Positions 44,117-63,252 of a DNA stretch of 64,000 nt are shown piece by piece (the first letter of the stretch is position 1; every line of letters starts with the position of its first letter). Under the pieces are notes generated by a model. That model did not search any database, was not told the DNA's origin, and worked only from the letters and a program-made list of their open reading frames with translations. The position numbers and the translations under genes are program-made. Origin of the DNA: Leucobacter viscericola (GTDB lineage: Bacteria; Actinomycetota; Actinomycetes; Actinomycetales; Microbacteriaceae); NCBI RefSeq assembly GCF_011299575.1, contig NZ_CP049863.1, positions 3,596,001 to 3,660,000 of the forward strand. Direction: 5' to 3'.

Positions 44117-44140
44117 GATGCGCAATTATTTAGCCGACAA

Positions 44141-45045: not shown

Positions 45046-45063
45046 TTCGAACATATGTTCGAA
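45046..45063 (-). promoter_or_regulatory. SOS (LexA) box
   Basis: TTCGAACATATGTTCGAA is an 18-bp perfect palindrome that contains TCGAAC-N4-GTTCGA, the LexA site known from mycobacteria and relatives. It lies 20-37 bp upstream of the start at 45026, a position where LexA would block transcription. Confidence 0.85.
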
Positions 45064-45076
45064 CGGGGGTTGGTTA

Positions 45077-45094
45077 GAGGGTAACAAACCCCTC
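45077..45094 (-). terminator. Weak hairpin upstream of the SOS box
   Basis: GAGGG (45077-45081) pairs with CCCTC (45090-45094). It lies just after the stop of the 140-residue coiled-coil gene and could end that transcript before the SOS-box promoter. Confidence 0.4.
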
Positions 45095-45105
45095 CGACAA
45101 ATGCG

Positions 45106-45528
45106 CTACTTCGACTTAACTTCGATGGGATTGCAAGTGCTTCCCTTGGGCGTGCCTGCTGGACCCTTGGGGGGTCGCTGATGCTCGTCTGGGGTGTCGC
45201 GGTTCCGCTCAGTGCACTCGTGTTCTAGGCGCTTGATCTCGAGCCGCAAATCGGCGTTTTCATGGGCGAGCTGGTCAACCTTGGCAAGGTATGCCAGCTT
45301 GAGTGCGCTGTCAACGTCCCGCTCCAACTCAAGCTCAGCTAGGCGAGTGCTCCTCGCGCCATCCACCGCAATTCTGGCCTCTAGGGTCGCGACGCGGCTC
45401 TGGAGAAAATTGAGTGCATTTGTAATGTTCCTGCGTGCCTGGTTACTCTCGCTGGAGTCGTAGCTCTTAACGCCATTGAGGTCGCTTTCGAGCTGGCCAG
45501 TAGCGTAGATTTGTGTGCTCACACTCAC
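45106..45528 (-). CDS. Coiled-coil phage protein
   Basis: The 140-residue protein has a long central coiled coil (NALNFLQSRVATLEARIAV, then VDQLAHENADLRLEIKRLEHECTERN) and a disordered Pro/Gly tail. No enzyme motif is visible. It overlaps the MazG-like gene by four bases. A structural or assembly role is possible. Confidence 0.6.
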   Translation of the reverse strand: MSVSTQIYATGQLESDLNGVKSYDSSESNQARRNITNALNFLQSRVATLEARIAVDGARSTRLAELELERDVDSALKLAYLAKVDQLAHENADLRLEIKRLEHECTERNRDTPDEHQRPPKGPAGTPKGSTCNPIEVKSK

Positions 45529-46007
45529 ACCGCCTTGCCGCCGTGCATATGGCCCCTGGTCGCGTTGAAGGCGAGCTTTTCCAGGATGACCTCGGCGAGG
45601 GAGAATCCCGCCTCATCGGCGAAGTCGAAGGCGCGAATCACGATGTCAGCCAGCTCGGATGGGACCCCCTCCGGCTTCGCGGTGCCGCAACTTTTCTCGA
45701 CCAGTGACTTAACGTCGCTCGAGACAGCCCCGCCCAAGCGGCTGTCGGTGCCGGAGTAGTAGCGCTCTGTGGCAGTGTGGCCGTTCCGCAGCTCCTCGAT
45801 CGCTTCGGTGACCTCGGTTCCAATGAGCGCGAGCTTGGTGATGTAGTAATTGCGAAGCGCAGCGTCGCCACCTTCTCGCGTGCCACTCATTTCCCGGAAG
45901 AAGTCGCCTTGGGTGCGAAAGCCGCGCTTGGCGTTGCCTTCGCCGATGACATCCTGGAGCGCATCCAAGGTTGAGTGGGGCTCGATGGTTGAGATGGAAC
46001 CCCGCAT
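45525..46007 (-). CDS. MazG-like NTP pyrophosphohydrolase
   Basis: The 160-residue protein has the helical MazG pattern: ALIGTEVTEAIEELRNG (E-x-x-E-x), then PSELADIVIRAFDFADEAG (E-x-x-D), with a final AFNATRGHMHGGKAV. Phage MazG-like enzymes hydrolyse nucleotides such as dNTPs or (p)ppGpp precursors. It sits beside a glutaredoxin gene, suggesting nucleotide metabolism. Confidence 0.8.
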   Translation of the reverse strand: MRGSISTIEPHSTLDALQDVIGEGNAKRGFRTQGDFFREMSGTREGGDAALRNYYITKLALIGTEVTEAIEELRNGHTATERYYSGTDSRLGGAVSSDVKSLVEKSCGTAKPEGVPSELADIVIRAFDFADEAGFSLAEVILEKLAFNATRGHMHGGKAV

Positions 46008-46411
46008 TACGCGGCCTCGTATTCAGCTTCGGCGTCCAATTCGGGCTCGTCGGCGTCGATCTGCAGCTCGGGGGTTGGCGCCAGTTCGTCAACATCTGAT
46101 GTCGAGATTGTGCGCGTCTTGGGGTAGCGATCGGCGGGGAAAAGACTCTCCAGGACGTCGACGCGGAAATCGGAGAATACGATCTCCGAACTCTCGGCGG
46201 TAATGGGGCTCGGCTCTGCGATCACCATAGGCGCCGACTTGATGGCGAAAGCGGCGGCCGTTTCGCGATTCTCGGGAGCTTCGATGTTTTCGACACTGAA
46301 ATCAATCTCTCGCTCAAGGAGCCAGCGCTTCGTGATGGTGCAGGCCATGCAACCTCGCTGTTTCGAGTAGACAGTGATCGAGTGTTCCTGGGGGATGGTG
46401 ACTGTTGGCAT
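46007..46411 (-). CDS. Glutaredoxin-like (NrdH-type) protein
   Basis: The first 80 residues form a thioredoxin fold with the redox pair Cys21-Met-Ala-Cys24 (YSKQRGCMACTITKRWL) and the cis-Pro region KSAPMVIAE. An acidic tail of about 45 residues follows. NrdH-like glutaredoxins reduce ribonucleotide reductase. Its stop overlaps the MazG-like start. A copy of the recurrent palindrome lies 32 bp before its ATG. Confidence 0.8.
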   Translation of the reverse strand: MPTVTIPQEHSITVYSKQRGCMACTITKRWLLEREIDFSVENIEAPENRETAAAFAIKSAPMVIAEPSPITAESSEIVFSDFRVDVLESLFPADRYPKTRTISTSDVDELAPTPELQIDADEPELDAEAEYEAA

Positions 46412-46442
46412 GTGAGTCCTCTCTGGTGAGTGCGGTTCGAAT

Positions 46443-46454
46443 TAGCTGGCTAAA
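46443..46454. promoter_or_regulatory. Recurrent 12-bp palindrome, copy 1
   Basis: TTAGCTGGCTAA fits TTAGYYRRCTAA exactly. It lies between the 102-residue gene and the glutaredoxin gene. Confidence 0.65.
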
Positions 46455-46475
46455 TGTGACTGGAAGGAGAGGGGG

Positions 46476-46784
46476 TTAAACCTCTTCGACAAATCCGAGG
46501 GCCTTGTCCTCGGGAATGAAGCCAGAGCGAATAGTTGAAGGGGCGGCGTGTGATTGGGCGGCGTGTTTCGGCGCGCTTGTGAGGTTACTGCCCGCATCCG
46601 AGAAGTCGCCCTCCATTGCCACGGGGATCCCCGCCCAGTTCTGGTAGGTCACTTCGCGAACGACGCCGTTCTCGAGGCGCTCCGTAAAGCGGAGCCGCGA
46701 CTGGTCGACTGACATGGACTGGAGCTGGGAAGGGGTGATGTCGAACTGGGAAAGGAAGGGTGTAAGTAGTTCAAAAGGCTTCAT
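46476..46784 (-). CDS. Phage protein of unknown function
   Basis: The 102-residue protein (MKPFELLTPFLSQFDITPSQLQ) has an N-terminal helical part, a beta part (LRFTERLENGVVREVTYQNWAGIPVAME) and a polar C-terminus. No family is recognised. It lies between two copies of the palindrome, at 46443 and 46815. Confidence 0.55.
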   Translation of the reverse strand: MKPFELLTPFLSQFDITPSQLQSMSVDQSRLRFTERLENGVVREVTYQNWAGIPVAMEGDFSDAGSNLTSAPKHAAQSHAAPSTIRSGFIPEDKALGFVEEV

Positions 46785-46814
46785 GAAAGTCAGCCTAACA
46801 CCAATATGGGGAAT

Positions 46815-46826
46815 TTAGTGGGCTAA
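46815..46826. promoter_or_regulatory. Recurrent 12-bp palindrome, variant copy
   Basis: TTAGTGGGCTAA has one mismatch to TTAGYYRRCTAA. It is preceded at 46797 by ACACCAATATG, the first part of the 27-bp element, but with two extra bases in the spacing. Confidence 0.5.
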
Positions 46827-46876
46827 ATGTGGGAATCTAAACCACCGGGAGGGCTGGGGGTCGAGAAGTTACTCAG

Positions 46877-47221
46877 TTAGCGGCACTCCGCGTCAAATGC
46901 TGCGGTGGCCTCAACAAAACTGCTCGAAAACTTCGCAATTCCAGCCTCGTCACCTACCTTCAGAGCATCGGCATACTGTCCAGCAACGGTGGATAGCGAG
47001 GCAAACTTTGGAGAGGGGAGCAGCTCCTCGAGGTTCTTCATGACGCTAAACATTGCGGCGTTGTCTGAAGCATCCGCCTGCGCGATGCGATGAGCGGCCT
47101 CGTCCATGATCCGAGTGTAGGTTTGGCAATCCGTGGAGGTAGTCGTGCAGCCAGTGAGCCCGATCGAGGTGAGCAAAACGACTGCGGAAGTGAGGCCGAG
47201 GTTACCTGCTTTGGAGGGCAT
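46877..47221 (-). CDS. Phage-encoded lipoprotein
   Basis: From ATG 47221 (MPSKAGNLGLTSAVVLLTSI) the protein has 114 residues with a signal sequence and lipobox GLTGC (Cys25). The mature part is helical (AAHRIAQADASDNAAMF, SFVEATAAFDAECR). It is the first minus-strand gene next to the early region, where temperate actinophages often carry lipoproteins that block superinfection. That role is inference. Confidence 0.7.
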   Translation of the reverse strand: MPSKAGNLGLTSAVVLLTSIGLTGCTTTSTDCQTYTRIMDEAAHRIAQADASDNAAMFSVMKNLEELLPSPKFASLSTVAGQYADALKVGDEAGIAKFSSSFVEATAAFDAECR

Positions 47222-47559
47222 GATTTTCAGAATAGCGTAGAAAAAAAATTGGGGCCAGTGTGGGGCAAAAAATGGGGGAACAATGAATAGTGTGCGCGGG
47301 GGCGGCCCAACCACCACGTCCCCCCTCTACGCGCCACAAATCGCGACCTTTCCTTCGTCTCGCCTTGCGCCACGTTGTCTCTTTGTGTCTCTTGCTGTGC
47401 GCTGTGTGCCCGGGGTGTCTCGCGGTCGCGTTGACTGCGTGTTGCTTGTCGTGCATGTGTGCATGAAAGTGGGCCTTGCTTCCCGCGATGGGTTGGAATT
47501 GATTGCATATTTTATGCTGAATTAGTTGACTATCCTACGCATTAGTGTAAACTGGAGTC
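47222..47559. promoter_or_regulatory. Divergent control region, no convincing gene
   Basis: This 338-bp space separates the leftward genes (from 47221) and rightward genes (from 47560). It contains a GT-rich stretch (47380-47470) and, at 47522-47548 on the minus strand, one full 27-bp promoter-operator element. Two open frames of about 80 codons exist on opposite strands, but neither resembles a known protein. Confidence 0.6.
47522..47548 (-). promoter_or_regulatory. 27-bp promoter-operator element (leftward)
   Basis: On the minus strand the parts are ACACTAATGCG, hexamer TAGGAT and AGTCAACTAA, in the fixed order and spacing seen at three other sites. It would drive transcription toward the lipoprotein gene. 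Confidence 0.65.
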
Positions 47560-47886
47560 ATGGGAAACGACAGGAATGAACTTACCGCCCCGGCCTCCGC
47601 GCGTCACGCGGGAGCTGTCGAGCCGTGGATCACGGCACGCGCCTACGTCAACCGTTACGGCTCACACCGTGGCAAACATGGCGTAACTCATGGCAACCCA
47701 ACACGCACTGAGCGCCGCACTGTAGCGCGCGTTCGCACCGCGTACCGCCTGCTTGTCTCGCGCCCTCGTCATGGCCGACACGGCACTACCGCGCCACTGT
47801 CACGCGGCTGCGAGCACTGGGAATGCCAACTACTTGATGTGTTCTGCACGTTCACCACAGCCAAGCTCGCACCCGCATTTAGCTAG
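47560..47886 (+). CDS. Basic phage protein, first early gene
   Basis: The 108-residue protein is strongly basic and His/Arg-rich (RYGSHRGKHGVTHGNPTRTERRTVARVRTAYR) and could bind nucleic acid. CTGGAG lies before ATG 47560. Its stop TAG falls inside a copy of the palindrome. No family is recognised. Confidence 0.55.
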   Translation: MGNDRNELTAPASARHAGAVEPWITARAYVNRYGSHRGKHGVTHGNPTRTERRTVARVRTAYRLLVSRPRHGRHGTTAPLSRGCEHWECQLLDVFCTFTTAKLAPAFS

Positions 47887-47890
47887 CTAA
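47879..47890. promoter_or_regulatory. Recurrent 12-bp palindrome, copy 3
   Basis: TTAGCTAGCTAA is a perfect palindrome that overlaps the stop codon of the preceding gene and lies 28 bp before the next ATG. Confidence 0.65.
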
Positions 47891-47917
47891 TTGACTCTCA
47901 CGTATAGGACTAGACCA

Positions 47918-48307
47918 ATGACTGAAACAGATGACCGCACGCTAGCCGCCCAGCATGCCGATAGCCTGATCGCTGACATTCGCAACCGCACTGAGCAGGG
48001 CGCGCCATTCGGGTGGCTTGACCCTGAGTCGGGCGAACCTCTTGATGAATGGCAAGAGGATTGCGTGAGTGTTGCCGCGATTGATTATCTGGGTGACGCG
48101 CTCGACATTCGCTATATCGTCAACAATGATCGGAGTTACCGCGCGGCTCAAGTGTGCATCTCACTCGGCGGCCCTAATGTGTGGATTGACACCGATGACA
48201 AAGAGCTCCAGGTGTACTGGGACGGCCGCTCTATTCGTTCGCTACCTAGCGCCTTCGTTGAGGCGATAGATGAGGCGTTGTCTGAACTATGGGAGATGGG
48301 CGCATGA
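47918..48307 (+). CDS. Acidic phage protein of unknown function
   Basis: From ATG 47918 (MTETDDRTLAAQHADSLIAD) the 129-residue protein is acidic and ends in a helical segment (PSAFVEAIDEALSELWEMGA). WLDPESGEPLDEWQEDCVSVAAIDYLGDALDIRY looks like a small alpha-beta domain. The stop overlaps the next small gene. Confidence 0.55.
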   Translation: MTETDDRTLAAQHADSLIADIRNRTEQGAPFGWLDPESGEPLDEWQEDCVSVAAIDYLGDALDIRYIVNNDRSYRAAQVCISLGGPNVWIDTDDKELQVYWDGRSIRSLPSAFVEAIDEALSELWEMGA

Positions 48308-48438
48308 GTACCCCAACCCTCGCGCCGGTAACGGCCAAGCCCGGCTGTCAGCCGCCGTGCAAGATTTGCTGTGCAGGTTGCGCCGATCCCGAAAACCACC
48401 CACACGCGTTCGACTGTGAAGAATGGAACAGATTATGA
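48304..48438 (+). CDS. Tiny Cys-rich protein
   Basis: A 44-residue frame starts at ATG 48304 (ATGA overlap) and ends with TGA overlapping the next ATG. It contains C-x3-C-x2-CC-x2-C and a later H/C pair (CQPPCKICCAGC, HAFDC), so it may be a small zinc-binding knuckle. The overlaps at both ends support it as a gene. Confidence 0.5.
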   Translation: MSTPTLAPVTAKPGCQPPCKICCAGCADPENHPHAFDCEEWNRL

Positions 48439-48842
48439 ATAGCTCAGTTGTTGTTGAGTTCCGCGCCCGTATCCGAGAGGTTGACGGGGTGAAGTACGTG
48501 AGTGTTCCAAAACTCACACAGAGCCACGTTATCCAGGGTGACAAGGCCACCTATACGCCTACAAGCCTCGTTCTCGCCGCTGCGTTGCTGCGACTCTCGC
48601 AGGGCGCGCGCCGCGTCGATTCTCCGATGCTTGAACATGTGAGCGGTGACTTTATCGGCACCTTTCGTGTTCGCCTCGGTACGTGGGGCGTAGTTCGCGC
48701 GGCACAAGCTGCGAGGCGCGAGGCGATGGGCGCGGGCTGGGATAGTCAACGCGAGCGCCTGGGGGAATATGAGGACCGCTGTTATCGTGCCGCTCTCGCC
48801 GTCTTTCAGCGCGCTGCACACCCGGCGGCATTAGTCCACTAA
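48435..48842 (+). CDS. Phage protein of unknown function
   Basis: From ATG 48435 (MNSSVVVEFRARIREVDGVKY) the product has 135 residues with a beta-rich N-terminal half and helical, Arg-rich C-terminal half. Its TAA stop lies in a palindrome copy. No function is recognised. Confidence 0.55.
   Translation: MNSSVVVEFRARIREVDGVKYVSVPKLTQSHVIQGDKATYTPTSLVLAAALLRLSQGARRVDSPMLEHVSGDFIGTFRVRLGTWGVVRAAQAARREAMGAGWDSQRERLGEYEDRCYRAALAVFQRAAHPAALVH
48831..48842. promoter_or_regulatory. Recurrent palindrome, variant copy
   Basis: TTAGTCCACTAA has one mismatch to TTAGYYRRCTAA and ends with the stop codon of the preceding gene. Confidence 0.5.
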
Positions 48843-48886
48843 ATCAGTAAGGAATCGGCGCTACCGCGCCGGGGAGGATCGAAGCA

Positions 48887-49231
48887 ATGAACACGCTAGC
48901 CGAGGCAGTTACTCGAACTATTGAGAGCGCGAACGCCGCTGCAACGAATCACTGGGCAATGATCGAATGGACTATTCGATATGACTTTACTGACGCAGAG
49001 TCACAGCGCTATCACTTGCGCGCGAGCCGCAGCGGCGCGGGAACTTGGGTATTGCGTGAGCTAGACGCACCTGGCTGCGACGGTGGGGACACGTTGAGTC
49101 TGGTCTGGATTGATCCCAGCGTCATCTCACGCATTCACTCAACCCCCGGATCATTCGACCTCATGGGCGCGCCGGTTATCAAGCCTTGGCTCACCGGTCT
49201 TTACAAAGATAGCGAACTCGTGTTCGCCTAG
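48887..49231 (+). CDS. Phage protein of unknown function
   Basis: The 114-residue protein (MNTLAEAVTRTIESANAAATN) follows GGGGAGGATCGAAGCA, a strong ribosome site. MIEWTIRYDFTDAESQRYHLRASRSGAGTWVLREL suggests a small beta domain. Nothing diagnostic is present. Confidence 0.55.
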   Translation: MNTLAEAVTRTIESANAAATNHWAMIEWTIRYDFTDAESQRYHLRASRSGAGTWVLRELDAPGCDGGDTLSLVWIDPSVISRIHSTPGSFDLMGAPVIKPWLTGLYKDSELVFA

Positions 49232-49273
49232 CCGGCCTCAGAACTACCTCACGACACGGAACGGATCAAAGCA

Positions 49274-49372
49274 ATGTCGAACTACGCAACTCATAAGGCA
49301 ACCGCACGCGGCAAGGCTCAGACGCTCGCACGCAAAGCGCACCGACGCGCGAAGTATGGGAGCGCACGATGA
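49274..49372 (+). CDS. Tiny basic protein
   Basis: A 32-residue frame (MSNYATHKATARGKAQTLAR...) lies between two supported genes and overlaps the next ATG by four bases. It is very basic. The coupling supports translation; the function is unknown. Confidence 0.4.
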   Translation: MSNYATHKATARGKAQTLARKAHRRAKYGSAR

Positions 49373-49515
49373 ACCCGACCGAGTGGCGTGAAGTGTGCCG
49401 CCTCGAAGATGCTGAAGAGCGGCGCGAAGCCCGCGAGGCTCAGAAACGGTTGCATGACAAAGCCGTGGAGCGTCGACGTAAAGCCAAGAAGCAGAGGAAG
49501 CGGGCTGGACGATGA
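49369..49515 (+). CDS. Tiny charged coiled-coil protein
   Basis: A 48-residue frame (MNPTEWREVCRLEDAEERRE...) is almost all Arg, Lys, Glu and Ala and should be one long helix with a very basic end. It overlaps genes on both sides by four bases. Confidence 0.45.
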   Translation: MNPTEWREVCRLEDAEERREAREAQKRLHDKAVERRRKAKKQRKRAGR

Positions 49516-49679
49516 TCGCCGAACTGTGGCGGTTGCTCTCAGAAACCGGCTTCGGATCTTCGCTGATTTTGTTCGGGGGACTGGTGGCAATTTGCTACAC
49601 AGCATTCGGCAAATCGGACGATTCGGCAAGTTCAAGCGCTGAGGACTTGAACTCAGTCCAAGAAGTCGATTTACACTAA
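49512..49679 (+). CDS. Small single-pass membrane protein
   Basis: A 55-residue frame has one membrane helix (SSLILFGGLVAICYTAF, about residues 16-32) and an acidic Ser-rich tail. It overlaps the previous stop and ends where the AT-rich control region begins. Confidence 0.5.
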   Translation: MIAELWRLLSETGFGSSLILFGGLVAICYTAFGKSDDSASSSAEDLNSVQEVDLH

Positions 49680-49786
49680 TATGACGAACGAATTTCGACT
49701 CTTTCCAATCTCAATATACGAACATATGTACATATAGCAATATAGCTAGATGTATTTAGATGATATTTCTCTCGTCATATTAGTGT
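49673..49786. promoter_or_regulatory. 15-bp inverted repeat around an AT-rich core (candidate origin or hub)
   Basis: ACACTAATATGACGA at 49673-49687 recurs as its exact complement at 49772-49786. The 84 bp between are strongly AT-rich in an otherwise GC-rich element, and contain a degenerate SOS-like palindrome and several TATA/ATAT steps. The first 11 bases of each arm match the first part of the 27-bp promoter-operator element. Confidence 0.65.
49718..49733. promoter_or_regulatory. Degenerate SOS-like box
   Basis: ACGAACATATGTACAT keeps CGAAC-ATAT-GT of the perfect box at 45046 but loses the right half. It lies in the AT-rich core between the inverted repeats. Confidence 0.4.
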
Positions 49787-49852
49787 TACGTCAGACAACT
49801 GACCTCTAATCTCCAAATACCCAACCACACGCTACGATCTGGAGGGATCGCA

Positions 49853-49957
49853 ATGTTTAAGCCAATTTCACCCCGCACCGCTGCGAGGATCAATTACCGC
49901 CCGCACTCGCCGCTTGTGGAGCCTTTCACGCTCCAATTCAAGCCCATCACGCCATAG
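49853..49957 (+). CDS. Tiny basic protein
   Basis: A 34-residue frame (MFKPISPRTAARINYRPHSP...) follows GGAGGGATCGCA, one of the best ribosome sites in the region. It is the first frame after the AT-rich core. The function is unknown. Confidence 0.45.
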   Translation: MFKPISPRTAARINYRPHSPLVEPFTLQFKPITP

Positions 49958-50123
49958 TAGGAACAACAATGTTGATTCATGGCAACATGAATATGTAAAT
50001 AATTTGCAGGTTCATGGCGCAATGAAAACAACATTGTTGCACCTACCATGCAGTAATGGTCAATGTCTGACCATCAAGTTACACTCGAAACCAAGACACA
50101 AGCCCAGCTCTGGAGGAACCGAA
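49958..50123 (+). promoter_or_regulatory. Structured leader before the 88-residue gene
   Basis: This segment holds the stem ATTCATG-GCAA-CATGAAT (49975-49992) and two near-palindromes CAACAATGTTG (49965-49975) and CAACATTGTTG (50029-50039). A 9-codon frame starts within the first. It may be an untranslated regulatory leader; no longer gene is convincing. Confidence 0.4.
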
Positions 50124-50390
50124 ATGGCACGCAAATTCATACCGAAAGACCCAGCTGTAGTTTTTTCTGCGCAAGGGAAACTTGACGTGTTCCAGGTTGA
50201 GAAGGTGAGTGACTTCAGGTCGGATGGGTACTACGTGACCAGTGTCGAGAGTGGTCTCGTTCTTCATAAATTCGACACATACGAAGAGGCTGAGCAAGAG
50301 GCGAAAATGCACGCGAACCCGCCTACCGAGCCAGAGGCGGCTAAGGCGTGGTATCGAGCACACCACGGACCAGACCTCGTAAGCGCGTAG
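50124..50390 (+). CDS. Phage protein of unknown function
   Basis: GGAGGAACCGAA precedes ATG 50124 (MARKFIPKDPAVVFSAQGKL), giving 88 residues; the open frame upstream is probably leader. The sequence DVFQVEKVSDFRSDGYYVTSVESGLVLHKFDTYEEAEQEA suggests a small beta domain with a helix. No family is recognised. Confidence 0.55.
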   Translation: MARKFIPKDPAVVFSAQGKLDVFQVEKVSDFRSDGYYVTSVESGLVLHKFDTYEEAEQEAKMHANPPTEPEAAKAWYRAHHGPDLVSA

Positions 50391-50430
50391 TTTCGCAAGC
50401 TGTGGGCCAAGTTTTGAGTCGCGCTCATAA

Positions 50431-50457
50431 ACACTAATATGTAAAATAGCCAACTAA
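50431..50457 (+). promoter_or_regulatory. 27-bp promoter-operator element (rightward)
   Basis: ACACTAATATG, hexamer TAAAAT and AGCCAACTAA follow one another without gaps, 20 bp before ATG 50477. No good -35 is placed 17-18 bp upstream. Confidence 0.65.
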
Positions 50458-50476
50458 AACCCGAAGGATCTTAGCA

Positions 50477-50803
50477 ATGAGTACCAGGACAGTCGATGAG
50501 AAAAACCGCACGATCACGGAGACATTCGAGACCGAACGCGAAGGGATCGTGCTGGCAATCGTAACCACGCATTTGCCAGGCCGAATCTTGACCAGGGCTC
50601 GACGGCGTGAAGTAACCCCGCTGGGGTTTCGTGAGAAGTTCACTTCTGTGGCCTCGAACCACGCACCAGTGCCGCGCAAGAGCGCGCAGTGCAACCGCTA
50701 TAGCCTCAAGCGCCTAGAGGCTGAGCACGCGGCCTACATGGCTGAGCACGTTTCAACCCCCGAGCAAATCGAAGCGCTCACGACATGGGCGGAGCGGTTC
50801 TGA
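50477..50803 (+). CDS. Phage protein of unknown function
   Basis: The 108-residue protein (MSTRTVDEKNRTITETFETER) follows a 27-bp control element and a GAAGGATC ribosome site. It has a beta-rich N-terminus and a helical C-terminus. It opens a long coupled gene set. No family is recognised. Confidence 0.55.
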   Translation: MSTRTVDEKNRTITETFETEREGIVLAIVTTHLPGRILTRARRREVTPLGFREKFTSVASNHAPVPRKSAQCNRYSLKRLEAEHAAYMAEHVSTPEQIEALTTWAERF

Positions 50804-51198: not shown

Positions 51199-51200
51199 AA

Positions 51201-51548
51201 ATGAATACGAACACCGAAATTAGCCAGCTAAATCGTGACGAGCTTGCGCACGACGCAGCGCAAGAGCTCATTGAAGCTCTGTTCCACGACAGCGAGACGG
51301 TTTGGAAGCTCGCGCCGATGTTCAGCTGCGCGCAATCCGACGCGATGCAGCGTTTGATCGAGCTAGTCGGCCCAGTTCCCAACGAGAGCCGAACTCGTGC
51401 GGCTGAGTGGCGCGAGTCCCACATTCTGAACAAGATCAATGGCCACCACAACGGACCCAAGGGGTCGCCTGATGCTGTCCACTACAACGAAAAGCTGGAT
51501 CACGAATTGTCTCTTGTAGTTCGCCTCGCGAGCGGAGAAGTGAAATGA
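51201..51548 (+). CDS. Helical phage protein of unknown function
   Basis: ATG 51201 gives 115 residues (MNTNTEISQLNRDELAHDAAQELIEALFHDSE). A copy of the palindrome at 51220-51231 lies in its seventh to tenth codons. The stop overlaps the next ATG by four bases. Confidence 0.55.
   Translation: MNTNTEISQLNRDELAHDAAQELIEALFHDSETVWKLAPMFSCAQSDAMQRLIELVGPVPNESRTRAAEWRESHILNKINGHHNGPKGSPDAVHYNEKLDHELSLVVRLASGEVK
51220..51231. promoter_or_regulatory. Recurrent 12-bp palindrome, copy inside a gene start
   Basis: TTAGCCAGCTAA fits exactly. It begins 19 bp after the start codon of the 115-residue gene, where a bound protein would block elongating RNA polymerase. Confidence 0.6.
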
Positions 51549-52197: not shown

Positions 52198-52209
52198 GGG
52201 AGACGCGAA

Positions 52210-52859: not shown

Positions 52860-52861
52860 TC

Positions 52862-53562: not shown

Positions 53563-53565
53563 ATC

Positions 53566-55715: not shown

Positions 55716-55879
55716 ACAATCACTGGCGCCGAGCGCTGTACACCATCGACCACCCGAGCGGCGATCGTTACGCGCTCCTGCCCGTCTACGGTCAACCCGA
55801 CACCGTGCTCAAGAGCGTCATGGAGCAGCAACCTTGGCTGCGAGACATTCGCACCCCAGAACCAAAACTAGCCAGCTAA
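55697..55879 (+). CDS. Small phage protein
   Basis: The 60-residue protein (MLYLRVNNHWRRALYTIDHP) overlaps the end of the previous gene by 19 bp. Its TAA stop ends a variant copy of the palindrome at 55868-55879. Confidence 0.45.
   Translation: MLYLRVNNHWRRALYTIDHPSGDRYALLPVYGQPDTVLKSVMEQQPWLRDIRTPEPKLAS
55868..55879. promoter_or_regulatory. Recurrent palindrome, variant copy
   Basis: CTAGCCAGCTAA differs from the consensus at the first base and coincides with the stop codon of the 60-residue gene. Confidence 0.5.
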
Positions 55880-55906
55880 AACGCACGACAAGATAAAGGA
55901 GAAATC

Positions 55907-56254: not shown

Positions 56255-56266
56255 AGGAGCCTGACC

Positions 56267-57910: not shown

Positions 57911-57920
57911 ACTGTTGTGT

Positions 57921-57932
57921 TTAGTCAGCTAA
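57921..57932. promoter_or_regulatory. Recurrent 12-bp palindrome with adjacent ACACTAATATG
   Basis: TTAGTCAGCTAA (exact match) is followed at 57939-57949 by ACACTAATATG, whose last three bases are the start codon of the next gene. Here the two parts are in reverse order relative to the 27-bp element. Confidence 0.6.
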
Positions 57933-57946
57933 TTTGAAACACTAAT

Positions 57947-58210
57947 ATGAGTGATTGGAGAGATGCGATGAATGCTCGCAAAATACGCTTTTCGTTTGAG
58001 GCCCACGGGTCCGAGGAGATGCGAGAGATGATTGATCGCTATGAGGATGCCGAGCTCGAGGTGGAAACTTACCGCGATCGCTCGCACAGTTGCGATTATC
58101 TGCAGTCATTTGTGGTGCCCGAAATCTCTCTCGAGGTTGTCAATGTTGACCTCGCCGATGAGTGTGATGGCTGCGCGCGTGAGCTGAATATCTCCAAGCT
58201 CGCCGCGTGA
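57947..58210 (+). CDS. Phage protein with Cys pair
   Basis: The 87-residue protein (MSDWRDAMNARKIRFSFEAHGSEEM) ends with DECDGCARELNIS, a single C-x2-C. The function is unknown. It begins in the ACACTAATATG motif, so its leader is extremely short or absent if that site is a -10. Confidence 0.5.
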   Translation: MSDWRDAMNARKIRFSFEAHGSEEMREMIDRYEDAELEVETYRDRSHSCDYLQSFVVPEISLEVVNVDLADECDGCARELNISKLAA

Positions 58211-58211
58211 A

Positions 58212-58223
58212 TTAGTCGACTAA
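58212..58223. promoter_or_regulatory. Recurrent 12-bp palindrome, copy
   Basis: TTAGTCGACTAA is a perfect palindrome two bases after the previous stop. Confidence 0.65.
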
Positions 58224-58274
58224 ATTTCACGCAAGACTTACCGTGCGGGTTCTCGCGCAGATAGGACAAACGAA

Positions 58275-58586
58275 ATGACGATGACGCAAGTAGGGGGAGT
58301 CGCTATGGAACTTCCGATCAATTATTCAACTTCATCATGGCAGGAGCGGCGTGAAGCGCGTGAGGAGTATGCCCGGAGGCAGAAGGGGATGTGCTTCTAC
58401 TGCAGATCGCAACTCGACAAAGAGCCGCCGAGCGCAATAACCAAGAAGCCGGTCAACTGGAAGCTTTTTCCGCCCCAGTTTCTCAAGTACCCAGTCCACC
58501 TTCAACACAACCACGACACTGACATGACGGAAGGGGCTGTCCACGCTTACTGCAACGCTGTGATGTGGCAGTACGAAGGACGATGA
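58275..58586 (+). CDS. HNH endonuclease
   Basis: The 103-residue protein has a treble-clef HNH core: GMCFYCRSQL (Cys40, Cys43), then VHLQHNHDTDMTEG and VHAYCNAVMW (His90, Cys93, Asn94). The arrangement resembles endonuclease VII-like HNH proteins of phages. Standalone HNH proteins near terminases aid packaging, but here it sits in the early region. ATG 58275 or the better-served ATG 58305 (GGGGGAG upstream) can start it. Confidence 0.75.
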   Translation: MTMTQVGGVAMELPINYSTSSWQERREAREEYARRQKGMCFYCRSQLDKEPPSAITKKPVNWKLFPPQFLKYPVHLQHNHDTDMTEGAVHAYCNAVMWQYEGR

Positions 58587-58590
58587 CACC

Positions 58591-59091
58591 ATGACACCAG
58601 AACAGAAACGCGCACAGATCGACAAGTTGCGAGAGCTGGCAGACCCGCAGTTCAACCTCTCGATTCCCGACGGGGCGAAGCGGGCAATCACTCTCGTTGC
58701 TGACGCCTTGGAAGCGACACCAAACACACCAGACCGTGGCGAGCTCGCAAAGCTGCTGGCCGAGAAATCGGTGGACGCGTGTCTTACTGGGCTGCTCGAT
58801 GAGGAAGCCGTGGGGTTGGCTGACGCGATCCTTGCTGCGTATCCCGCGGTTTCTCGTGCTGCTGTACCCGAAGCGACAGAACCGGAATGGGAGTACAGCG
58901 TTGGGCACCGCAATTCGAAAGGTGGCTACTCGGCTGATGCCGACATGGACGAGGACGAGTTGTGCACCAGCCTTATCGAGGTACAAGAGCGGGTAGTCGA
59001 AGCAGTCGAAAGTGGCACTTACGCCAATGCTCTGCCTTTGCGTCGCCGCCAACGAGTGTGGTTGCCGGTACCGGAGAGGGGCGAGGAATGA
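58591..59091 (+). CDS. Phage protein of unknown function
   Basis: The 166-residue protein (MTPEQKRAQIDKLRELADPQ) has a helical N-terminal region and an alpha-beta part (EWEYSVGHRNSKGGYSADADMDEDE) similar to short repeats seen in actinophage early proteins. It overlaps the next gene. Confidence 0.5.
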   Translation: MTPEQKRAQIDKLRELADPQFNLSIPDGAKRAITLVADALEATPNTPDRGELAKLLAEKSVDACLTGLLDEEAVGLADAILAAYPAVSRAAVPEATEPEWEYSVGHRNSKGGYSADADMDEDELCTSLIEVQERVVEAVESGTYANALPLRRRQRVWLPVPERGEE

Positions 59092-59309
59092 AGCGCAGCG
59101 AGATGAAATGCCTGGCATATGAGAGGCCGGGACGCACCCCGTTCGAGGTGCGCGAAATAAAGGGCGGGTTCACGACGATGTTGGGCGATACGCCGGTTAG
59201 TGCGTCAACGCCTCTCGGGTTGGACTCTGCACTGACCACGTTGGGAGCGCCGACGCCCCGTGATCTTTACCTGATTGACGATAAGGACGGAGAGAGCGGT
59301 GAAGCGTGA
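59088..59309 (+). CDS. Small phage protein
   Basis: ATG 59088 (ATGA overlap) gives 73 residues (MKRSEMKCLAYERPGRTPFEVRE). It is a small alpha-beta protein with no motif. Confidence 0.5.
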   Translation: MKRSEMKCLAYERPGRTPFEVREIKGGFTTMLGDTPVSASTPLGLDSALTTLGAPTPRDLYLIDDKDGESGEA

Positions 59310-59634
59310 CACTCGGAGCGCGTTTCGGTCTCGTGCGCGCGCGATGGATCAGATCGTGGCTGGCGCGGTAGCTGAGCGTAAGCAAGAACTTGACGAACGA
59401 TCGAGGGGTGCGGCAGAGGCTTCTGCGCGCGTCTCGGCGATGGTGCGTGACCGGCAGAAAGCAGCGCATGAAGAGGCCGACCTAAAGGCGCAGTTTGAGG
59501 GTTGCACTGAAGCGCAATGGGCACTCAATGGCCGGTGGTATCCGGTCGTCAGATGGAACAAGAAAACCGTGAGCGTGGACATGCCTACGAAGCGCACCAC
59601 GATCCCGCATAACGAACTTGGAGGGGCGCGATGA
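59299..59634 (+). CDS. Coiled-coil phage protein
   Basis: GTG 59299 gives 111 residues with a long helix (AGAVAERKQELDERSRGAAEASARVSAMVRDRQKAAHEEADLKAQF). A short beta part follows (WYPVVRWNKKTVSVDMPTKRTTIPHNEL). GGAGAGAG precedes it. The function is unknown. Confidence 0.5.
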   Translation: MKRDTRSAFRSRARAMDQIVAGAVAERKQELDERSRGAAEASARVSAMVRDRQKAAHEEADLKAQFEGCTEAQWALNGRWYPVVRWNKKTVSVDMPTKRTTIPHNELGGAR

Positions 59635-60716
59635 CTGAGACAGAACGCAAGACAGCGGTCGAAAAGGCCGCACGGGTGATCTGGGAGCAAAGGCGAACAC
59701 TTGATCGCTCACTTGGTGACTCGTGGGAGCTTGAACTGAGCATCAACCGCGATCCGATTTTCGAGGAAGCTGAAGCTCTCGCCGCTGCTGGTTTGTTGGT
59801 GGGTGAGCCGAGCGAAGAACAGCGGGAGCGGGCCAAGAAAGTTGCTAGCGGGGTATTCATCGACGGAAACCCATTCTCAAACGTTGAGGATGCGTGGATA
59901 GACGGTTTTACTGAGGGCTCCGCTCTCTCTGCTGCTGGTGTCGTCCCGGTTACTGGTAGCACCTCTGACGGTCATCACACTTTTGACGAGCTGTACGACT
60001 ATCGAATGCTGTACAACGCTCACGCGGCGACTGGGTGGCTTACTGCTGGTATTCCAGTGGTGAAATCTTGGAAGCACTCGGACGGTGAACCGTGCTTTGG
60101 CGTAGGCTGGTTTATCGTGACCGCGACGCTTCCGACTGGCCAGGTGTCGAACCATTATCGCGCGGAGCATTGGGACCTATTCGCTGTTCCCGAGGCGGAA
60201 CTGCCGCCTGAATATGACGGGCATACGCCTCAGGATGCCGCCGAGCGTTTACGCATCGCTGCTGGTGTCACCCCACCCGCACCAACATGCCAAACCTGCA
60301 ATGAAATTGGGCTTGTGGGTAGCAACCACATGAACTCTGGGGAGTGCCCGGATTGTGTGACTGCCCCGAGAGTTGAACGCGAGAAGCTGATCGAGCAGGT
60401 ACACGCCAAGGCGTTCGTTATGCTCTCCCAAGCGTCACCCTTGCAGCAGACACCATGGATCACGAGACTCGTCGGAGATGTCGTGGATATGGCTGCGGGT
60501 GCCCTGGCCTCTCCGGTAGAGCCGGTAACGGCAGACGAAGCGAAATTGGCCGAGGCTCGTGCTGAGGCCGTTCGTGAAACCGCCGACTATTTGGAAAGGA
60601 TTGCGCCAAAAGGTCTGATTGACCGTGCAGACGTTCTGGCAGACATGGAGATCGCTGCTGACAGGTTCTCTCGCGGTATTCACGCAAATGGAAGGGAGCG
60701 AGGTGGTGGGCAATGA
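59631..60716 (+). CDS. Phage protein with Tyr-Arg-Met-Leu-Tyr and YDGHTP motifs
   Basis: The 361-residue protein contains a segment often seen in actinophage early proteins: FDELYDYRMLYNAHAATGWL, VKSWKHSDGEPCFGVGWFIVTATLPTGQVSNHY, WDLFAVPEAELPPEYDGHTPQDAAERL. After it comes a possible zinc knuckle (CQTCNEIGLVGSN...GECPDC). The role is not known. It overlaps the previous gene by four bases. Confidence 0.55.
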   Translation: MTETERKTAVEKAARVIWEQRRTLDRSLGDSWELELSINRDPIFEEAEALAAAGLLVGEPSEEQRERAKKVASGVFIDGNPFSNVEDAWIDGFTEGSALSAAGVVPVTGSTSDGHHTFDELYDYRMLYNAHAATGWLTAGIPVVKSWKHSDGEPCFGVGWFIVTATLPTGQVSNHYRAEHWDLFAVPEAELPPEYDGHTPQDAAERLRIAAGVTPPAPTCQTCNEIGLVGSNHMNSGECPDCVTAPRVEREKLIEQVHAKAFVMLSQASPLQQTPWITRLVGDVVDMAAGALASPVEPVTADEAKLAEARAEAVRETADYLERIAPKGLIDRADVLADMEIAADRFSRGIHANGRERGGGQ

Positions 60717-60853
60717 GCGTCACAACGATCACGTTCAAGGTCCATACCCATCTAGACCCAGAGTGCCGCTTCCATGCCGGAGTTCGAGCCCTGTGGGGTT
60801 TCCGGTGGCTCTACAAGTGCGACGAGTGCAGGCGGGGTGATCGTAGTGAGTGA
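60713..60853 (+). CDS. Small Cys/His protein
   Basis: A 46-residue frame from ATG 60713 (ATGA overlap) has C-x2-H (CRFHAG) and C-x2-C (CDECRRG), a likely zinc-binding pair. The overlap supports it as a gene. Confidence 0.45.
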   Translation: MSVTTITFKVHTHLDPECRFHAGVRALWGFRWLYKCDECRRGDRSE

Positions 60854-61136
60854 GGGATACACGCCAACCACGGACGAGATATTCAACCTCACAATAAGCG
60901 TGACGGCTACTGAGGAGTTCAAAGCCCAGAGACGGCAGGAGTTTGGGCGCATGCTTGCTGAGGTTGAGCGTGCCGCCGCCGAGAAAGCGTGGGACGATCT
61001 TGCCCGGATTGCATACCCGCTGTACGAGGCGGCCGAGGCGGTCTATGTGGGGCACAAGGAACCGTCAACGCTACTCGCGCCACTCGGGAAGCTTGCCGCG
61101 CAGACAAACCCGTATCAACGAGAGGAAGAGAAATGA
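60846..61136 (+). CDS. Helical phage protein
   Basis: GTG 60846 gives 96 residues (VSEGYTPTTDEIFNLTISVT), mostly helical (RRQEFGRMLAEVERAAAEKAWDDLARIAYPL). GTG 60837 is an alternative. It overlaps both neighbours. Confidence 0.5.
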   Translation: MSEGYTPTTDEIFNLTISVTATEEFKAQRRQEFGRMLAEVERAAAEKAWDDLARIAYPLYEAAEAVYVGHKEPSTLLAPLGKLAAQTNPYQREEEK

Positions 61137-61327
61137 GCGTAACCGTGGCGCTAATGCTGTCCGCGCTCCCGTTTGCGATCGTCGCTTTTGGCGGCTTAGT
61201 AAATGCCGGTGTTGAGAGCGGGATTGATGATCGGAAGGCAACGACATCCGCGCGTGTAGCAGTGTGGTGCGGGTCGGTTGCCGTGACCCTGTTTATAGCT
61301 GGACTTTGGGCGGGAGTGGAATGGTGA
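61133..61327 (+). CDS. Two-helix small membrane protein
   Basis: From ATG 61133 the 64-residue protein has two membrane helices (TVALMLSALPFAIVAFGGLV and ARVAVWCGSVAVTLFIAGLW) joined by a charged loop. This size and shape are typical of holins, but it lies among early genes with no lysin nearby, so the role is open. Confidence 0.5.
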   Translation: MSVTVALMLSALPFAIVAFGGLVNAGVESGIDDRKATTSARVAVWCGSVAVTLFIAGLWAGVEW

Positions 61328-61668
61328 GCGGAAAGCTTGATCTTGACGAGTTAGAACGCATGCCGGTGGCGAAGCATAGCCCACATGTGCGGGCCCTGAT
61401 CGCTGAGCTACGAGAAGCACGCGCAGCAGTTAAGAAGCATGAAGTGGACCTTAAAGAGTGGGAAGAAGTAGGTGCTCCACGTTGGATCGAGGCCCGAGAG
61501 GAACTCGTGGACTCCGTGCGTGCCGAGCGTGACGCGGCATTGGCGGCAATCGCTCGTGTCCATGCAGCAGTCGAGTCAGCGAAGCACTGGAATGAAGGGT
61601 GCGGATGGGATGTGCCGTCCATTAAGGTGCTCCAAGCACTCGCGTCAGACGGGGGTGATGATGGCTGA
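61321..61668 (+). CDS. Coiled-coil phage protein
   Basis: The 115-residue protein (MVSGKLDLDELERMPVAKHSPHVRALIAEL) is helical through its middle (REARAAVKKHEVDLKEWEEV...RAERDAALAAIARVHAAVESA). It is similar in form to helper proteins of phage early operons. The function is unknown. Confidence 0.5.
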   Translation: MVSGKLDLDELERMPVAKHSPHVRALIAELREARAAVKKHEVDLKEWEEVGAPRWIEAREELVDSVRAERDAALAAIARVHAAVESAKHWNEGCGWDVPSIKVLQALASDGGDDG

Positions 61669-61834
61669 TTTGTCACTCTGGGCTTCTGTCGTTGCACTCG
61701 TTGTGTCCCTGTGTGCTTGTTGGTTTGGCTGGCACTGCAGGCAAAGTATGGACCCCAGCTCACGCACCCATCGAAGGCAAGCGCGAAGGCTGCAGCGCAA
61801 ATACTCAAAGAGCGCAGCGAAAGGAACCGAATGA
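61661..61834 (+). CDS. Small single-pass membrane protein
   Basis: The 57-residue frame from ATG 61661 has one membrane helix (LWASVVALVVSLCACWFGW) and a very basic tail. It overlaps the previous and next genes. Confidence 0.45.
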   Translation: MADLSLWASVVALVVSLCACWFGWHCRQSMDPSSRTHRRQARRLQRKYSKSAAKGTE

Positions 61835-61989
61835 CTATCGACCAAATCATTGAGGCAATAGCCGACTATCGCGACTGGATTGAGCGTCAACTGTTTGGTG
61901 CCCCGATCGACGTCGAGACGTATCGAGAGCACCTAGAGATCGAAGAACTACGAGAGAAAGCGGAGCCCCTTGGCGAAAAGGAATCCTGA
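61831..61989 (+). CDS. Small acidic phage protein
   Basis: A 52-residue frame from ATG 61831 (MTIDQIIEAIADYRDWIERQ) is helical and acidic. It overlaps the WhiB-like gene by about 20 bp. Confidence 0.45.
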   Translation: MTIDQIIEAIADYRDWIERQLFGAPIDVETYREHLEIEELREKAEPLGEKES

Positions 61990-62230
61990 GGCTGAATTGC
62001 GGCACGCCATTCAGAAGGAGTGGAAGAAGCCGAAATGTCTCGGTGGTGAGTCGCTCTATGTTGACTACGAGAAGCCGCCTACTCGGGTCGAGGCGCGCGC
62101 CTTGTGTCGAGGTTGCCCACTCCTTGAGCTCTGTGATGAGGCGGCCCAAACTCGACGCCCCGCATGGGGGGTGTGGGGTGGTCGGGTATACGGTTCAGGA
62201 AATTTCAGAAAACCGCTTGACAGGAATTAA
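61970..62230 (+). CDS. WhiB-like iron-sulfur regulator
   Basis: The 86-residue protein has the four cysteines of WhiB proteins (Cys23, Cys46, Cys49, Cys55 in ALCRGCPLLELC) and the G-V-W-G-G turn (PAWGVWGGRVYG). WhiB-like proteins bind a [4Fe-4S] cluster and the main sigma factor and alter promoter choice; phage versions can modify host transcription. It starts at TTG 61970. Its stop precedes a TTGACA-type promoter. Confidence 0.82.
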   Translation: MAKRNPEAELRHAIQKEWKKPKCLGGESLYVDYEKPPTRVEARALCRGCPLLELCDEAAQTRRPAWGVWGGRVYGSGNFRKPLDRN

Positions 62231-62256
62231 CACTAATGTGTAGATTAGTCAGCAAT
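62217..62256 (+). promoter_or_regulatory. Strong promoter with 27-bp operator element
   Basis: A consensus -35 TTGACA (62217-62222), 18-bp spacer and -10 TAGATT (62241-62246) contain the element ACACTAATGTG (62230-62240), TAGATT and AGTCAGCAAT. This is the clearest promoter of the set and shows that the element's hexamer is a -10. Confidence 0.75.
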
Positions 62257-62291
62257 GGGAAACGCAAACAAAAACAGATTGGAGGATCATC

Positions 62292-63224
62292 GTGGCACTT
62301 ACGGATGATGAGGTTCGTCGCCTAGCGGTTGACATTCTCAAGGCACCGACTGCGCGAGATATGCAGCAGAAGATCGGCGCTTCGAATCTCGCCAATGGCT
62401 GCAATTACTGCCTTGCCTGCAACCTTATGGGCGACATGCGGGAAACGCCGATGCTCGACCGGGCGTACCTTGGCCGCGTTTGGGGAACTGCAATTCATGC
62501 CCTCAAGGAAATGCGGCAGAAAGCCTGGCTCGCAGAGCAGCGGAAGGCTGATCGTGAAGAATGGGATGACATCAAGCGCCAGCGCATTGCGCCGTTTGCT
62601 CGCAGATTCCCTGACGCGCAGGTTGAGAAGCGATTCTCTCTCGGGCTTATCCCTGGATATGGTCGCGTCGGCTCCACCGCAGACCTCTTTCTTCCCAGTG
62701 AGGGGCATCTGTTTGACTGGAAGGGTTCGAAGCGCAAAGACATTCTGTTGCTGATTGACTTCCTGCACATGCAAAAGGGGCACCCTGAAGGGATCTTCGG
62801 TCGACGGCACCAGGACGTCAAGCTCAGCGAAGCGCAGTACGCCGAGCAGATGGTCAAGATGGAGTACAAGGTAACGGGCTACTTTGCCCAGCTTCAGAGT
62901 TACGGACGAGGCAAGGCGCTGCAGGGTTACGACGTCAAGCGAATGAGTATCGTGCTCATTGCGCGCGACGGCACTGGCTGGTTTGATAACCCTGGCCTTG
63001 ACGGTTGGGAAGACGAGCACAAGAAGCACGATCTTTACGTACTGAGTTTCGACTACAACCCCGAATACGCCAACTTTGTCTGGCAGCGCGGCCTCGACAT
63101 CTGGGCCGAGCTCCAGTCGGGCAAGCCTCTCGAGGGGTTTGAGCGCAACGTGAATTGCTTCCCCTGCTCCCTTGAAGTGAAGAACGCGCAGGAGCAAGCA
63201 GTTGTCACGCCAATTGCTGCATAG
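62292..63224 (+). CDS. Cas4/RecB-like PD-(D/E)XK nuclease with Fe-S cysteines
   Basis: The 310-residue protein has catalytic residues in GSTADLFLP (Asp131) and LFDWKGSKR (Asp142, Lys144) of a PD-(D/E)XK nuclease. The Cys set CNYCLAC (37, 40, 43) near the N-terminus and CFPC (289, 292) near the C-terminus resembles Cas4/AddB iron-sulfur nucleases. It pairs with the following Sak4-like ATPase as a recombination module. GTG 62292 follows GGAGGAT. Confidence 0.8.
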   Translation: MALTDDEVRRLAVDILKAPTARDMQQKIGASNLANGCNYCLACNLMGDMRETPMLDRAYLGRVWGTAIHALKEMRQKAWLAEQRKADREEWDDIKRQRIAPFARRFPDAQVEKRFSLGLIPGYGRVGSTADLFLPSEGHLFDWKGSKRKDILLLIDFLHMQKGHPEGIFGRRHQDVKLSEAQYAEQMVKMEYKVTGYFAQLQSYGRGKALQGYDVKRMSIVLIARDGTGWFDNPGLDGWEDEHKKHDLYVLSFDYNPEYANFVWQRGLDIWAELQSGKPLEGFERNVNCFPCSLEVKNAQEQAVVTPIAA

Positions 63225-63252
63225 AACACCAATGCGTGAAGTAGTCAGCTAA
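63214..63252 (+). promoter_or_regulatory. Promoter with 27-bp operator element
   Basis: -35-like TTGCTG (63214-63219), 17-bp spacer, then ACACCAATGCG (63226-63236), hexamer TGAAGT and AGTCAGCTAA lie before ATG 63276. The spacing inside the element is the same as in the other three copies. Confidence 0.65.

What the first reader, a model, noticed from the sequence alone, without database searches (positions are those of the whole stretch)
45046..63252. Recurrent TTAGYYRRCTAA palindrome at gene boundaries: a stoperator-like regulon
A 12-bp palindrome recurs at 46443, 47879, 51220, 57921 and 58212 as exact matches. One- or two-base variants occur at 46815, 47522, 48831, 50446, 55868, 62245 and 63241. 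Most lie between genes; 47879, 48831 and 55868 include the stop codon of the upstream gene. Mycobacteriophage L5-type stoperators are asymmetric repressor sites scattered through a genome to silence it; this one is palindromic and of different sequence. No site list I know matches it.
Basis: partly seen in the sequence, partly recalled or inferred. Interest (0 to 1): 0.85.

Follow-up and report, generated by a model that had tools for sequence, protein, structure and literature searches.

The report
Phage-wide palindromic operator set
A virus lying dormant in this bacterium carries one short mirror-image DNA sign in front of many of its genes, a number of distant relatives carry the same sign with small changes, and it looks like the docking site of a single master switch whose identity is still a guess.

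Summary
The region is the early arm of a 49-kb temperate prophage, present as a tandem dimer at a tRNA-Ala gene. TTAG-N4-CTAA occurs 12 times in one copy (0.15 expected) and 3 times outside the prophages in the 3.7-Mb genome. Nine of the 12 lie 19-51 nt before a start codon (random mean 1.1). Of 27 prophage or phage loci that share a DndB-family gene (g10), 12 carry two or more such palindromes, with spacing 4, 3 or 2 by locus, some at the same gene boundaries; five related isolate phages without g10 have none. Best reading: operators of one phage-encoded dimeric regulator, probably a repressor. g10 is the leading but unproven candidate: DndB is an autoregulating repressor elsewhere, site type fits the g10 tree with the fewest possible changes, and Pfam scans of 65 frames found no classical repressor. 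Against it, six g10-bearing loci lack clear sites. 'Stoperator-like' is partly supported: the layout matches, the symmetry does not, and an elongation block is untested. Nearest sequence match found: the KorB/KorA operators of plasmid RK2.

The parts
34435..34461 (+). 27-bp att core at the 3' end of tRNA-Ala(ggc): left end of prophage copy 1
   Evidence: Identical 27-mers at the left end, the junction of the two copies and the right end; tRNA at 34388-34461
34558..35703 (+). tyrosine integrase (g02)
   Evidence: PF00589 6.1e-22; phrog_1 integrase 1.7e-61
36271..36282. variant site TTAGCCAGCAAA after the capsid gene, next to a terminator-like hairpin (by eye)
   Evidence: 1 mismatch; a site lies in or at the edge of the same gap in G229, L037, L038, L040, L041 and L043
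42681..44078 (-). g10, DndB-family (DGQHR) protein: leading candidate for the site-binding regulator (inferred)
   Evidence: PF14072 3e-28, 99.3 bits over cut-off 29.1; lies beside the terminase genes here and in the first ten viral loci
44130..44141 (.). weak site TTAGCCGACAAT about 50 nt before the g10 start
   Evidence: 2 mismatches; not significant alone
45046..45063 (.). LexA-type (SOS) box TTCGAACATATGTTCGAA, 19 nt before the g13 start (45026)
   Evidence: exact CGAACN4GTTCG; LexA identity recalled
46442..46453 (.). operator-like palindrome TTAGCTGGCTAA, 30 nt before the 46411 start (g16)
46815..46826 (.). operator-like palindrome TTAGTGGGCTAA, 30 nt before the 46784 start (g17)
47522..47533 (.). 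variant TTAGTTGACTAT in the divergent gap, beside a second-motif copy
47879..47890 (.). palindrome TTAGCTAGCTAA, 27 nt before the 47918 start (g19)
48831..48842 (.). palindrome TTAGTCCACTAA overlapping the g20 stop, 44 nt before the 48887 start (g21)
50446..50457 (.). variant ATAGCCAACTAA, 19 nt before the 50477 start (g23)
51220..51231 (.). palindrome TTAGCCAGCTAA, 19 nt inside g25 (start 51201)
55868..55879 (.). variant CTAGCCAGCTAA at the g37 stop, 27 nt before the 55907 start (g38)
57921..57932 (.). palindrome TTAGTCAGCTAA after helicase-like g39, 35 nt before the 57968 start (g40); position shared with G229
58212..58223 (.). palindrome TTAGTCGACTAA, 51 nt before the 58275 start
62245..62256 (.). 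weak variant TTAGTCAGCAAT before g48 (start 62292)
   Evidence: 2 mismatches; preceded by a second-motif copy
63241..63252 (.). variant GTAGTCAGCTAA, 23 nt before the 63276 start (g49)
63226..63236 (+). second motif ACACYAATNYG, example of 8 in the window (others 46798, 47538-47548 -, 49673, 49776-49786 -, 50431, 57939, 62230)
   Evidence: 8 found, 0.32 expected, 0 of 100 shuffles reached 8
61970..62230 (+). WhiB-like protein (alternative candidate regulator)
   Evidence: PF02467 6.2e-08

Best explanation
The palindromes are operators. SHOWN: a palindrome (about AWTTAGYNNRCTAAWT here), concentrated in the prophage and recurring in relatives, sits before many operons, early and late, mostly 19-51 nt from the start codon. 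INFERRED: one phage-encoded dimeric DNA-binding protein binds them; bound there it would overlie the transcription start or leader of each operon and keep the prophage silent at many points at once (repressor). MOST LIKELY BINDER (about 0.4): g10, the DndB-family protein beside the terminase genes, acting like DndB of the dnd operon, which binds inverted repeats and represses its own operon. Chances I give: phage-encoded operator set 0.85; net repression 0.6; g10 as the binder 0.4. The confidence below is for the operator-plus-phage-repressor reading without insisting on g10.
For: Enrichment 12 vs 0.15 in the prophage; 3 sites elsewhere in the genome, reversed control 32 genome-wide. Gene-start placement 9 of 12 vs mean 1.1, 0 of 5000 draws. 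The 80-kb stretch of G229 has TAGCN2GCTA 12 times vs 0.33; its prophage matches 23 of our 70 called genes at 24-45% identity and has sites at some of the same gene boundaries. Of 27 g10-bearing loci, 12 have 2-12 strict sites of one spacing with at most 0.15 expected each, the spacing taken per locus after looking; 0 of 5 related isolate phages lacking g10 have a strict site of spacing 3 or 4. Blind test: a paired-site scan made without g10 gave L124, whose 59-kb record has 18 strict sites (reversed control 0) and a DndB gene; 22 other records chosen from that scan had none. Site type on the g10 tree needs 9 changes for 10 classes, the minimum; terminase, portal and g09 need 11. A site lies within 150 nt 5' of g10 in 6 of 26 loci vs 0.94 expected. 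Pfam on 65 reading frames found no XRE/cI, MarR, GntR or LexA-type repressor. S. enterica DndB represses and autoregulates through palindromic sites (PMC4507180, passages).
Confidence: 0.58

Rival explanations
1. Same operator set, but the binder is another phage protein: g52 (HTH protein next to the primase), g70 (HTH_17/MerR-like, first gene of the tail operon, two sites before it) or the WhiB-like protein.
For: g70 has two sites 24 and 44 nt before its start and PF12728 1.7e-05, below the cut-off; g52 has weak HTH hits, best PF13384 0.0042. WhiB PF02467 6.2e-08. g52 relatives occur in 5 of 8 related virus records; by eye G229 has a two-HTH protein, f66, in the same place after its primase.
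Against: g52 was not detected in three virus records (G505, G506, G510), two of them site-bearing, nor in G229 by that search. tblastn found no g70 in the G229 region. MerR- and WhiB-type proteins are not known to me as global phage repressors on 12-bp palindromes (recalled).
Confidence: 0.25
2. True stoperator mode: the bound protein blocks elongating RNA polymerase at gene ends rather than initiation.
For: By eye, sites adjoin a terminator-like hairpin after the capsid gene here and in L038, L040 and L041; one lies at convergent gene end 69359, and two over stop codons (48831, 55868).
Against: 9 of 12 strict sites precede a start codon by 19-51 nt, as promoter operators would; the palindrome gives no orientation bias.
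Confidence: 0.2
3. Sites are activator or phage-promoter elements that switch operons on, with the ACACYAATNYG box as partner.
For: ACACYAATNYG starts 15-16 nt before the start of five sites (47522, 50446, 62245, 63241, 83309), read on one strand.
Against: Many sites lie only 19-30 nt from start codons, leaving little room for a promoter downstream; most of the 12 strict sites lack the second box.
Confidence: 0.15
4. A host regulator is borrowed, for instance a MarR/SlyA-type protein, whose recalled box is TTAGCAAGCTAA.
For: Box similarity (recalled; one search lists 5 papers with that string, none read).
Against: Only 3 strict sites, 1 of them an exact match, outside the prophages; phage loci differ in variant and spacing, as expected if the regulator travels with the phage.
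Confidence: 0.05

Closest known systems
L5-type stoperators of Cluster A mycobacteriophages
   Same: Many copies of a short repressor site scattered over a temperate actinophage; related phages have similar, not identical, sites.
   Different: Those are 13-bp, asymmetric and mostly in one orientation (PMC6550527, passages); these are 12-bp palindromes of another sequence, and no elongation block is shown.
KorB/OB and KorA/OA of plasmid RK2
   Same: Half-site TTTAGC/GCTAAA (PMC2680271, passages); control of many plasmid genes by a plasmid-encoded repressor (PMC11790492, passages); L222 holds two exact KorB operators.
   Different: Our prophage uses spacing 4 and has no exact OB or OA; the g10 profile matches no PDB chain by sequence, which is inconclusive about KorB kinship.
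DndB of the dnd phosphorothioation operon (Salmonella)
   Same: g10 belongs to Pfam DndB; DndB binds inverted repeats and represses dndCDE and itself (PMC4507180, passages).
   Different: No DndC found in the host genome; box TACGN10CGTA is absent from the prophage; here there would be many sites across a phage.
Start-associated sequences of Cluster K mycobacteriophages
   Same: Repeated short motif near start codons, with no exact copy in the host M. smegmatis.
   Different: SAS is asymmetric, typically 3-7 bp from the start and in the RBS position (PMC3203893, passages); these sites are palindromic and further upstream.

Membership tests
L5-type stoperator system | asymmetric 13-bp site | tested here: not met
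   12-bp palindrome; symmetrised base counts extend it to about AWTTAGYNNRCTAAWT
L5-type stoperator system | many sites spread over the phage genome at gene boundaries | tested here: met
   12 strict sites in 49 kb, 9 near gene starts
L5-type stoperator system | Cluster A repressor homologue | tested here: inconclusive
   no classical repressor among 65 frames by Pfam; no direct comparison with L5 Rep
L5-type stoperator system | bound repressor stops elongation | not testable with these tools
   needs reporter assays
KorB/OB regulon | operator TTTAGCSGCTAAA (spacing 3) | tested here: not met
   0 in our prophage; 2 in relative L222
KorB/OB regulon | KorB homologue | tested here: inconclusive
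   g10 profile has no PDB sequence match at E 1 or better; the VIA-align list is headed by SspE/BrxU
DndB family (g10) | PF14072 match over the curated cut-off | tested here: met
   99.3 bits vs 29.1
DndB family (g10) | dnd modification genes in the genome | tested here: not met
   TIGR03183 (DndC) 0 matches in G000; other dnd genes not searched
DndB family (g10) | binding to TACGN10CGTA | tested here: not met
   0 such boxes in the prophage; binding itself not testable
Cluster K start-associated sequences | asymmetric 13-mer a few bases before the start codon | tested here: not met
   palindrome, 19-51 nt before start codons for 9 of 12
MarR/SlyA operator | MarR-family protein encoded by the element | tested here: inconclusive
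   none among 65 frames by Pfam; g49 and several tail genes were not scanned

The most novel reading that the evidence does not exclude
A DndB-family (DGQHR) protein, so far known as the regulator of a DNA-modification defence operon, serves in an uncultured lineage of temperate actinophages as the phage-wide repressor, binding 10-20 co-evolving palindromes (half-site TTAG, spacing 2, 3 or 4 by clade). It would be a new class of phage immunity repressor.
Probability: 0.35. Interest if true: 0.8.

Novelty: new variant of a known kind. Interest (0 to 1): 0.62.

Why it matters
It would add a symmetric design to the few phage systems I know that are silenced at many sites at once, and it gives a ready set of naturally diverged site variants. 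If g10 is the binder, it would tie a family known from DNA-modification defence to phage immunity and explain how this prophage, with no repressor recognised by Pfam, could keep lysogeny. No relative of g10 was found in 50,697 isolate phage records by tblastn at E 1e-5, so this lineage seems to be missing from culture collections.

Tried and rejected
Chance: rejected by shuffles and by the host count. Coding or composition artefact: rejected by gene-start placement and by recurrence in relatives. The compound pattern second-motif-plus-site gave one viral contig, L026, where site and second motif are no commoner than in shuffles: taken as chance; in the genus (54 genomes) only our own genome had it. 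The terminase and Cas4-like proteins as bait gave no viral relatives. The 23 records then searched whole for DndB were chosen by me for site excess or high G+C. HTH_3 repressors: of 8 records searched only G229 (listed hits outside its prophage) and G509 matched; by eye G229 also has a small XRE-like protein f35 behind two sites, which I did not follow. Fold searches of g10 gave only weak SspE/BrxU matches; KorB or ParB did not appear in the rows shown, which excludes nothing. A print search for six exact site strings gave 4 papers, none on phages by title; two searches listed no paper on such a palindrome by title or by the abstract start shown. Rows dropped before the 27-locus count: repeat or overlapping loci L042, L044, L189, L190, L206, L207, L213-L215, L217, L220; remote L191; short genome loci of G201 and G377. 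L209, L212 and L227 (too short) and L225 (unclear) were left unclassed. An earlier script for sites upstream of g10 failed to find the g10 start in 12 of 23 loci and was replaced.
Full report
OBSERVATION. The five exact TTAGYYRRCTAA matches and the seven variants exist as described, one start being off by a base. None of 100 dinucleotide shuffles of the window gave an exact match. The window belongs to a 3,697,133-base single-contig genome.

THE ELEMENT. Comparing the region with itself shows a tandem pair of prophages. Copy 1 runs from window 34435 to about 83499 (49,065 bases); copy 2 follows directly and runs across the contig end. A 27-base core at the 3' end of tRNA-Ala is repeated at the left end, the middle and the right end. 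The copies differ by 9 mismatches and 128 gap positions in 49,120 columns, mostly single bases missing from copy 2 in the part around the contig break, so probably consensus errors. The prophage has an integrase, a capsid gene, an amidase and a Prim-Pol primase by Pfam, a helicase-like protein (Helicase_C below its cut-off) and a relative of Cas4-type phage exonucleases. Portal, terminase and tail names rest on kinship with annotated phages, order and length.

ENRICHMENT. A blind scan of gapped 4-base dyads (gaps 0-12) in the prophage ranks TTAG-N4-CTAA first: 12 found, 0.15 expected. Whole-genome count: 12 in copy 1, 11 in copy 2 and 3 elsewhere; the reversed pattern occurs 32 times genome-wide. 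Symmetrised base counts of the 12 sites extend the palindrome: the next base outward is A or T in 24 of 24 half-sites and the one after is A in 17 of 24.

PLACEMENT. By my own gene calls, 9 of 12 strict sites are mostly non-coding and 9 of 12 have a start codon within 60 nt downstream, at 19-51 nt; random means 1.51 and 1.10, and 0 of 5000 random draws reached either. The exceptions are 51220 (just inside a gene), 69359 (convergent gene end) and 78368 (inside the tape-measure-like gene). Sites precede early genes and the tail operon alike; the latter has two sites whose starts are 20 bases apart before its first gene.

RELATIVES. In G229, tblastn matches 23 of our 70 called genes at 24-45% identity. 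The 80-kb stretch has TAGCN2GCTA 12 times, 0.33 expected. Several sites lie at the same gene boundaries in both prophages: after the capsid gene, after the helicase-like gene, at the g63/g62 boundary, before the first tail-operon gene, and before g10; three of ours in this list (36271, 79460, 44130) are one- or two-mismatch versions. A site is also in or at the edge of the capsid-g03 gap in 5 of 7 further loci where the gap could be mapped; the two without it, L039 and L045, have no strict site in their loci.

THE DndB-FAMILY GENE. g10 (42681-44078) matches Pfam DndB with 99.3 bits against a cut-off of 29.1. Relatives were found in viral contigs, in four actinobacterial records besides our own plus one remote match, and in G377 and weakly G201, but in no isolate phage record. 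Of 27 distinct loci, 8 have at least two TTAG-N4-CTAA, 3 have spacing 3 (L037, L221, L222) and 1 has spacing 2 (L211); the spacing was taken after looking at gaps 0-7. Others have single or relaxed sites or are short, and L039, L045, L046, L218, L224 and L226 have no strict and at most one relaxed site of spacing 3 or 4. The whole record of L039 has 2 strict sites in 69 kb. Five related isolate phages without g10 (CN1A, and 50 kb each of CMP1, Amigo, Cassita and Nonagon) have no strict site of spacing 3 or 4.

BLIND TEST. A scan of viral contigs for two sites close together, made without g10, gave L124 among the 80 loci listed. L124 has a primase like ours; its record has 18 strict sites with 0 reversed controls and a DndB gene. 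The 22 other records that I chose from that scan had no DndB gene, while 3 known records used as controls did.

CO-EVOLUTION. I classed loci by site type and counted the fewest changes on quick gene trees. On g10 the ten classes need 9 changes, the minimum possible; terminase, portal and g09 each need 11, and g03 needs 9 for nine classes. For coarse spacing classes on the shared 20 loci, g10 and portal both need 5, g09 6 and terminase 7, so the portal is as good there. The classes were defined after seeing the sites, five of ten have a single member, L187 entered the spacing-3 class on one relaxed site, and support for the spacing-3 group on the g10 tree is low. This is support, not proof. Sites within 150 nt before g10 occur in 6 of 26 loci, 0.94 expected.

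CANDIDATES. Pfam scans of 65 reading frames found no cI/XRE, MarR, GntR or LexA-type repressor; the DNA-binding candidates are g10, g52 (weak HTH), g70 (HTH_17, below cut-off) and a WhiB-like protein. g44, g49 and several tail genes were not scanned. DndB of Salmonella binds two palindromic motifs and represses dndCDE and its own gene (PMC4507180, passages), which makes g10 the best guess. Against it stand six g10-bearing loci without clear sites, spacing 3 in L037 despite a similar g10, no good site before our own g10, and a model resembling SspE/BrxU only weakly. No DndC was found in the genome.

MECHANISM. Most likely a dimer of one phage protein covers each palindrome at the transcription start or leader of the operon and represses it. 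The start-codon distance is shown; transcription starts, binding and repression are inferred. An SOS-type box at 45046-45063, 19 nt before g13, suggests how induction could enter, but how it would lift repression is unknown.

COMPARISON. It works like a multi-site phage repressor system (L5 stoperators) or the KorB/KorA network of plasmid RK2, whose operators share the half-site (PMC2680271, PMC11790492, PMC6550527: passages). It is not shown to be a member of either. I call it a new variant of a known kind.

Noticed in passing
34435-64000 and genome C1:3630435-3697133 plus 1 to about 31360: Tandem dimer of a 49-kb prophage at tRNA-Ala; the contig break lies inside copy 2, and copy 2 differs mostly by single-base gaps.
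   Followed up: partly
46798, 47538, 49673, 49776, 50431, 57939, 62230, 63226 (and two beyond the window): A second repeated motif ACACYAATNYG, often beside the palindromes; two copies at 49673 and 49776 face each other in a 0.9-kb gap without called genes.
   Followed up: partly
45046-45063: Perfect LexA-type SOS box before a small gene operon; boxes with at most one mismatch lie within 1.3 kb upstream of g10 in 6 of 25 other loci.
   Followed up: partly
L100 (IMGVR_UViG_3300028591_002900): 21 TTAG-N4-CTAA sites (19 TTAGCCGGCTAA, 2 TTAGCTGGCTAA) in 13 kb of an apparently unrelated phage, several inside genes as in-frame repeats.
   Followed up: no
L058, L065, L074, L107, L112, L127, L130: TTAG-N4-CTAA sites in two pairs about 1.4-4.7 kb apart, like classical left and right operators of a repressor.
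   Followed up: no
L211: g10-bearing contig with three TTAG-N2-CTAA sites, a possible third spacing class.
   Followed up: no
L038 and L041, before g10: A shared stretch TCGAACAMAAATACGA 11-12 nt before the g10 start, possibly an SOS-like or alternative operator.
   Followed up: no
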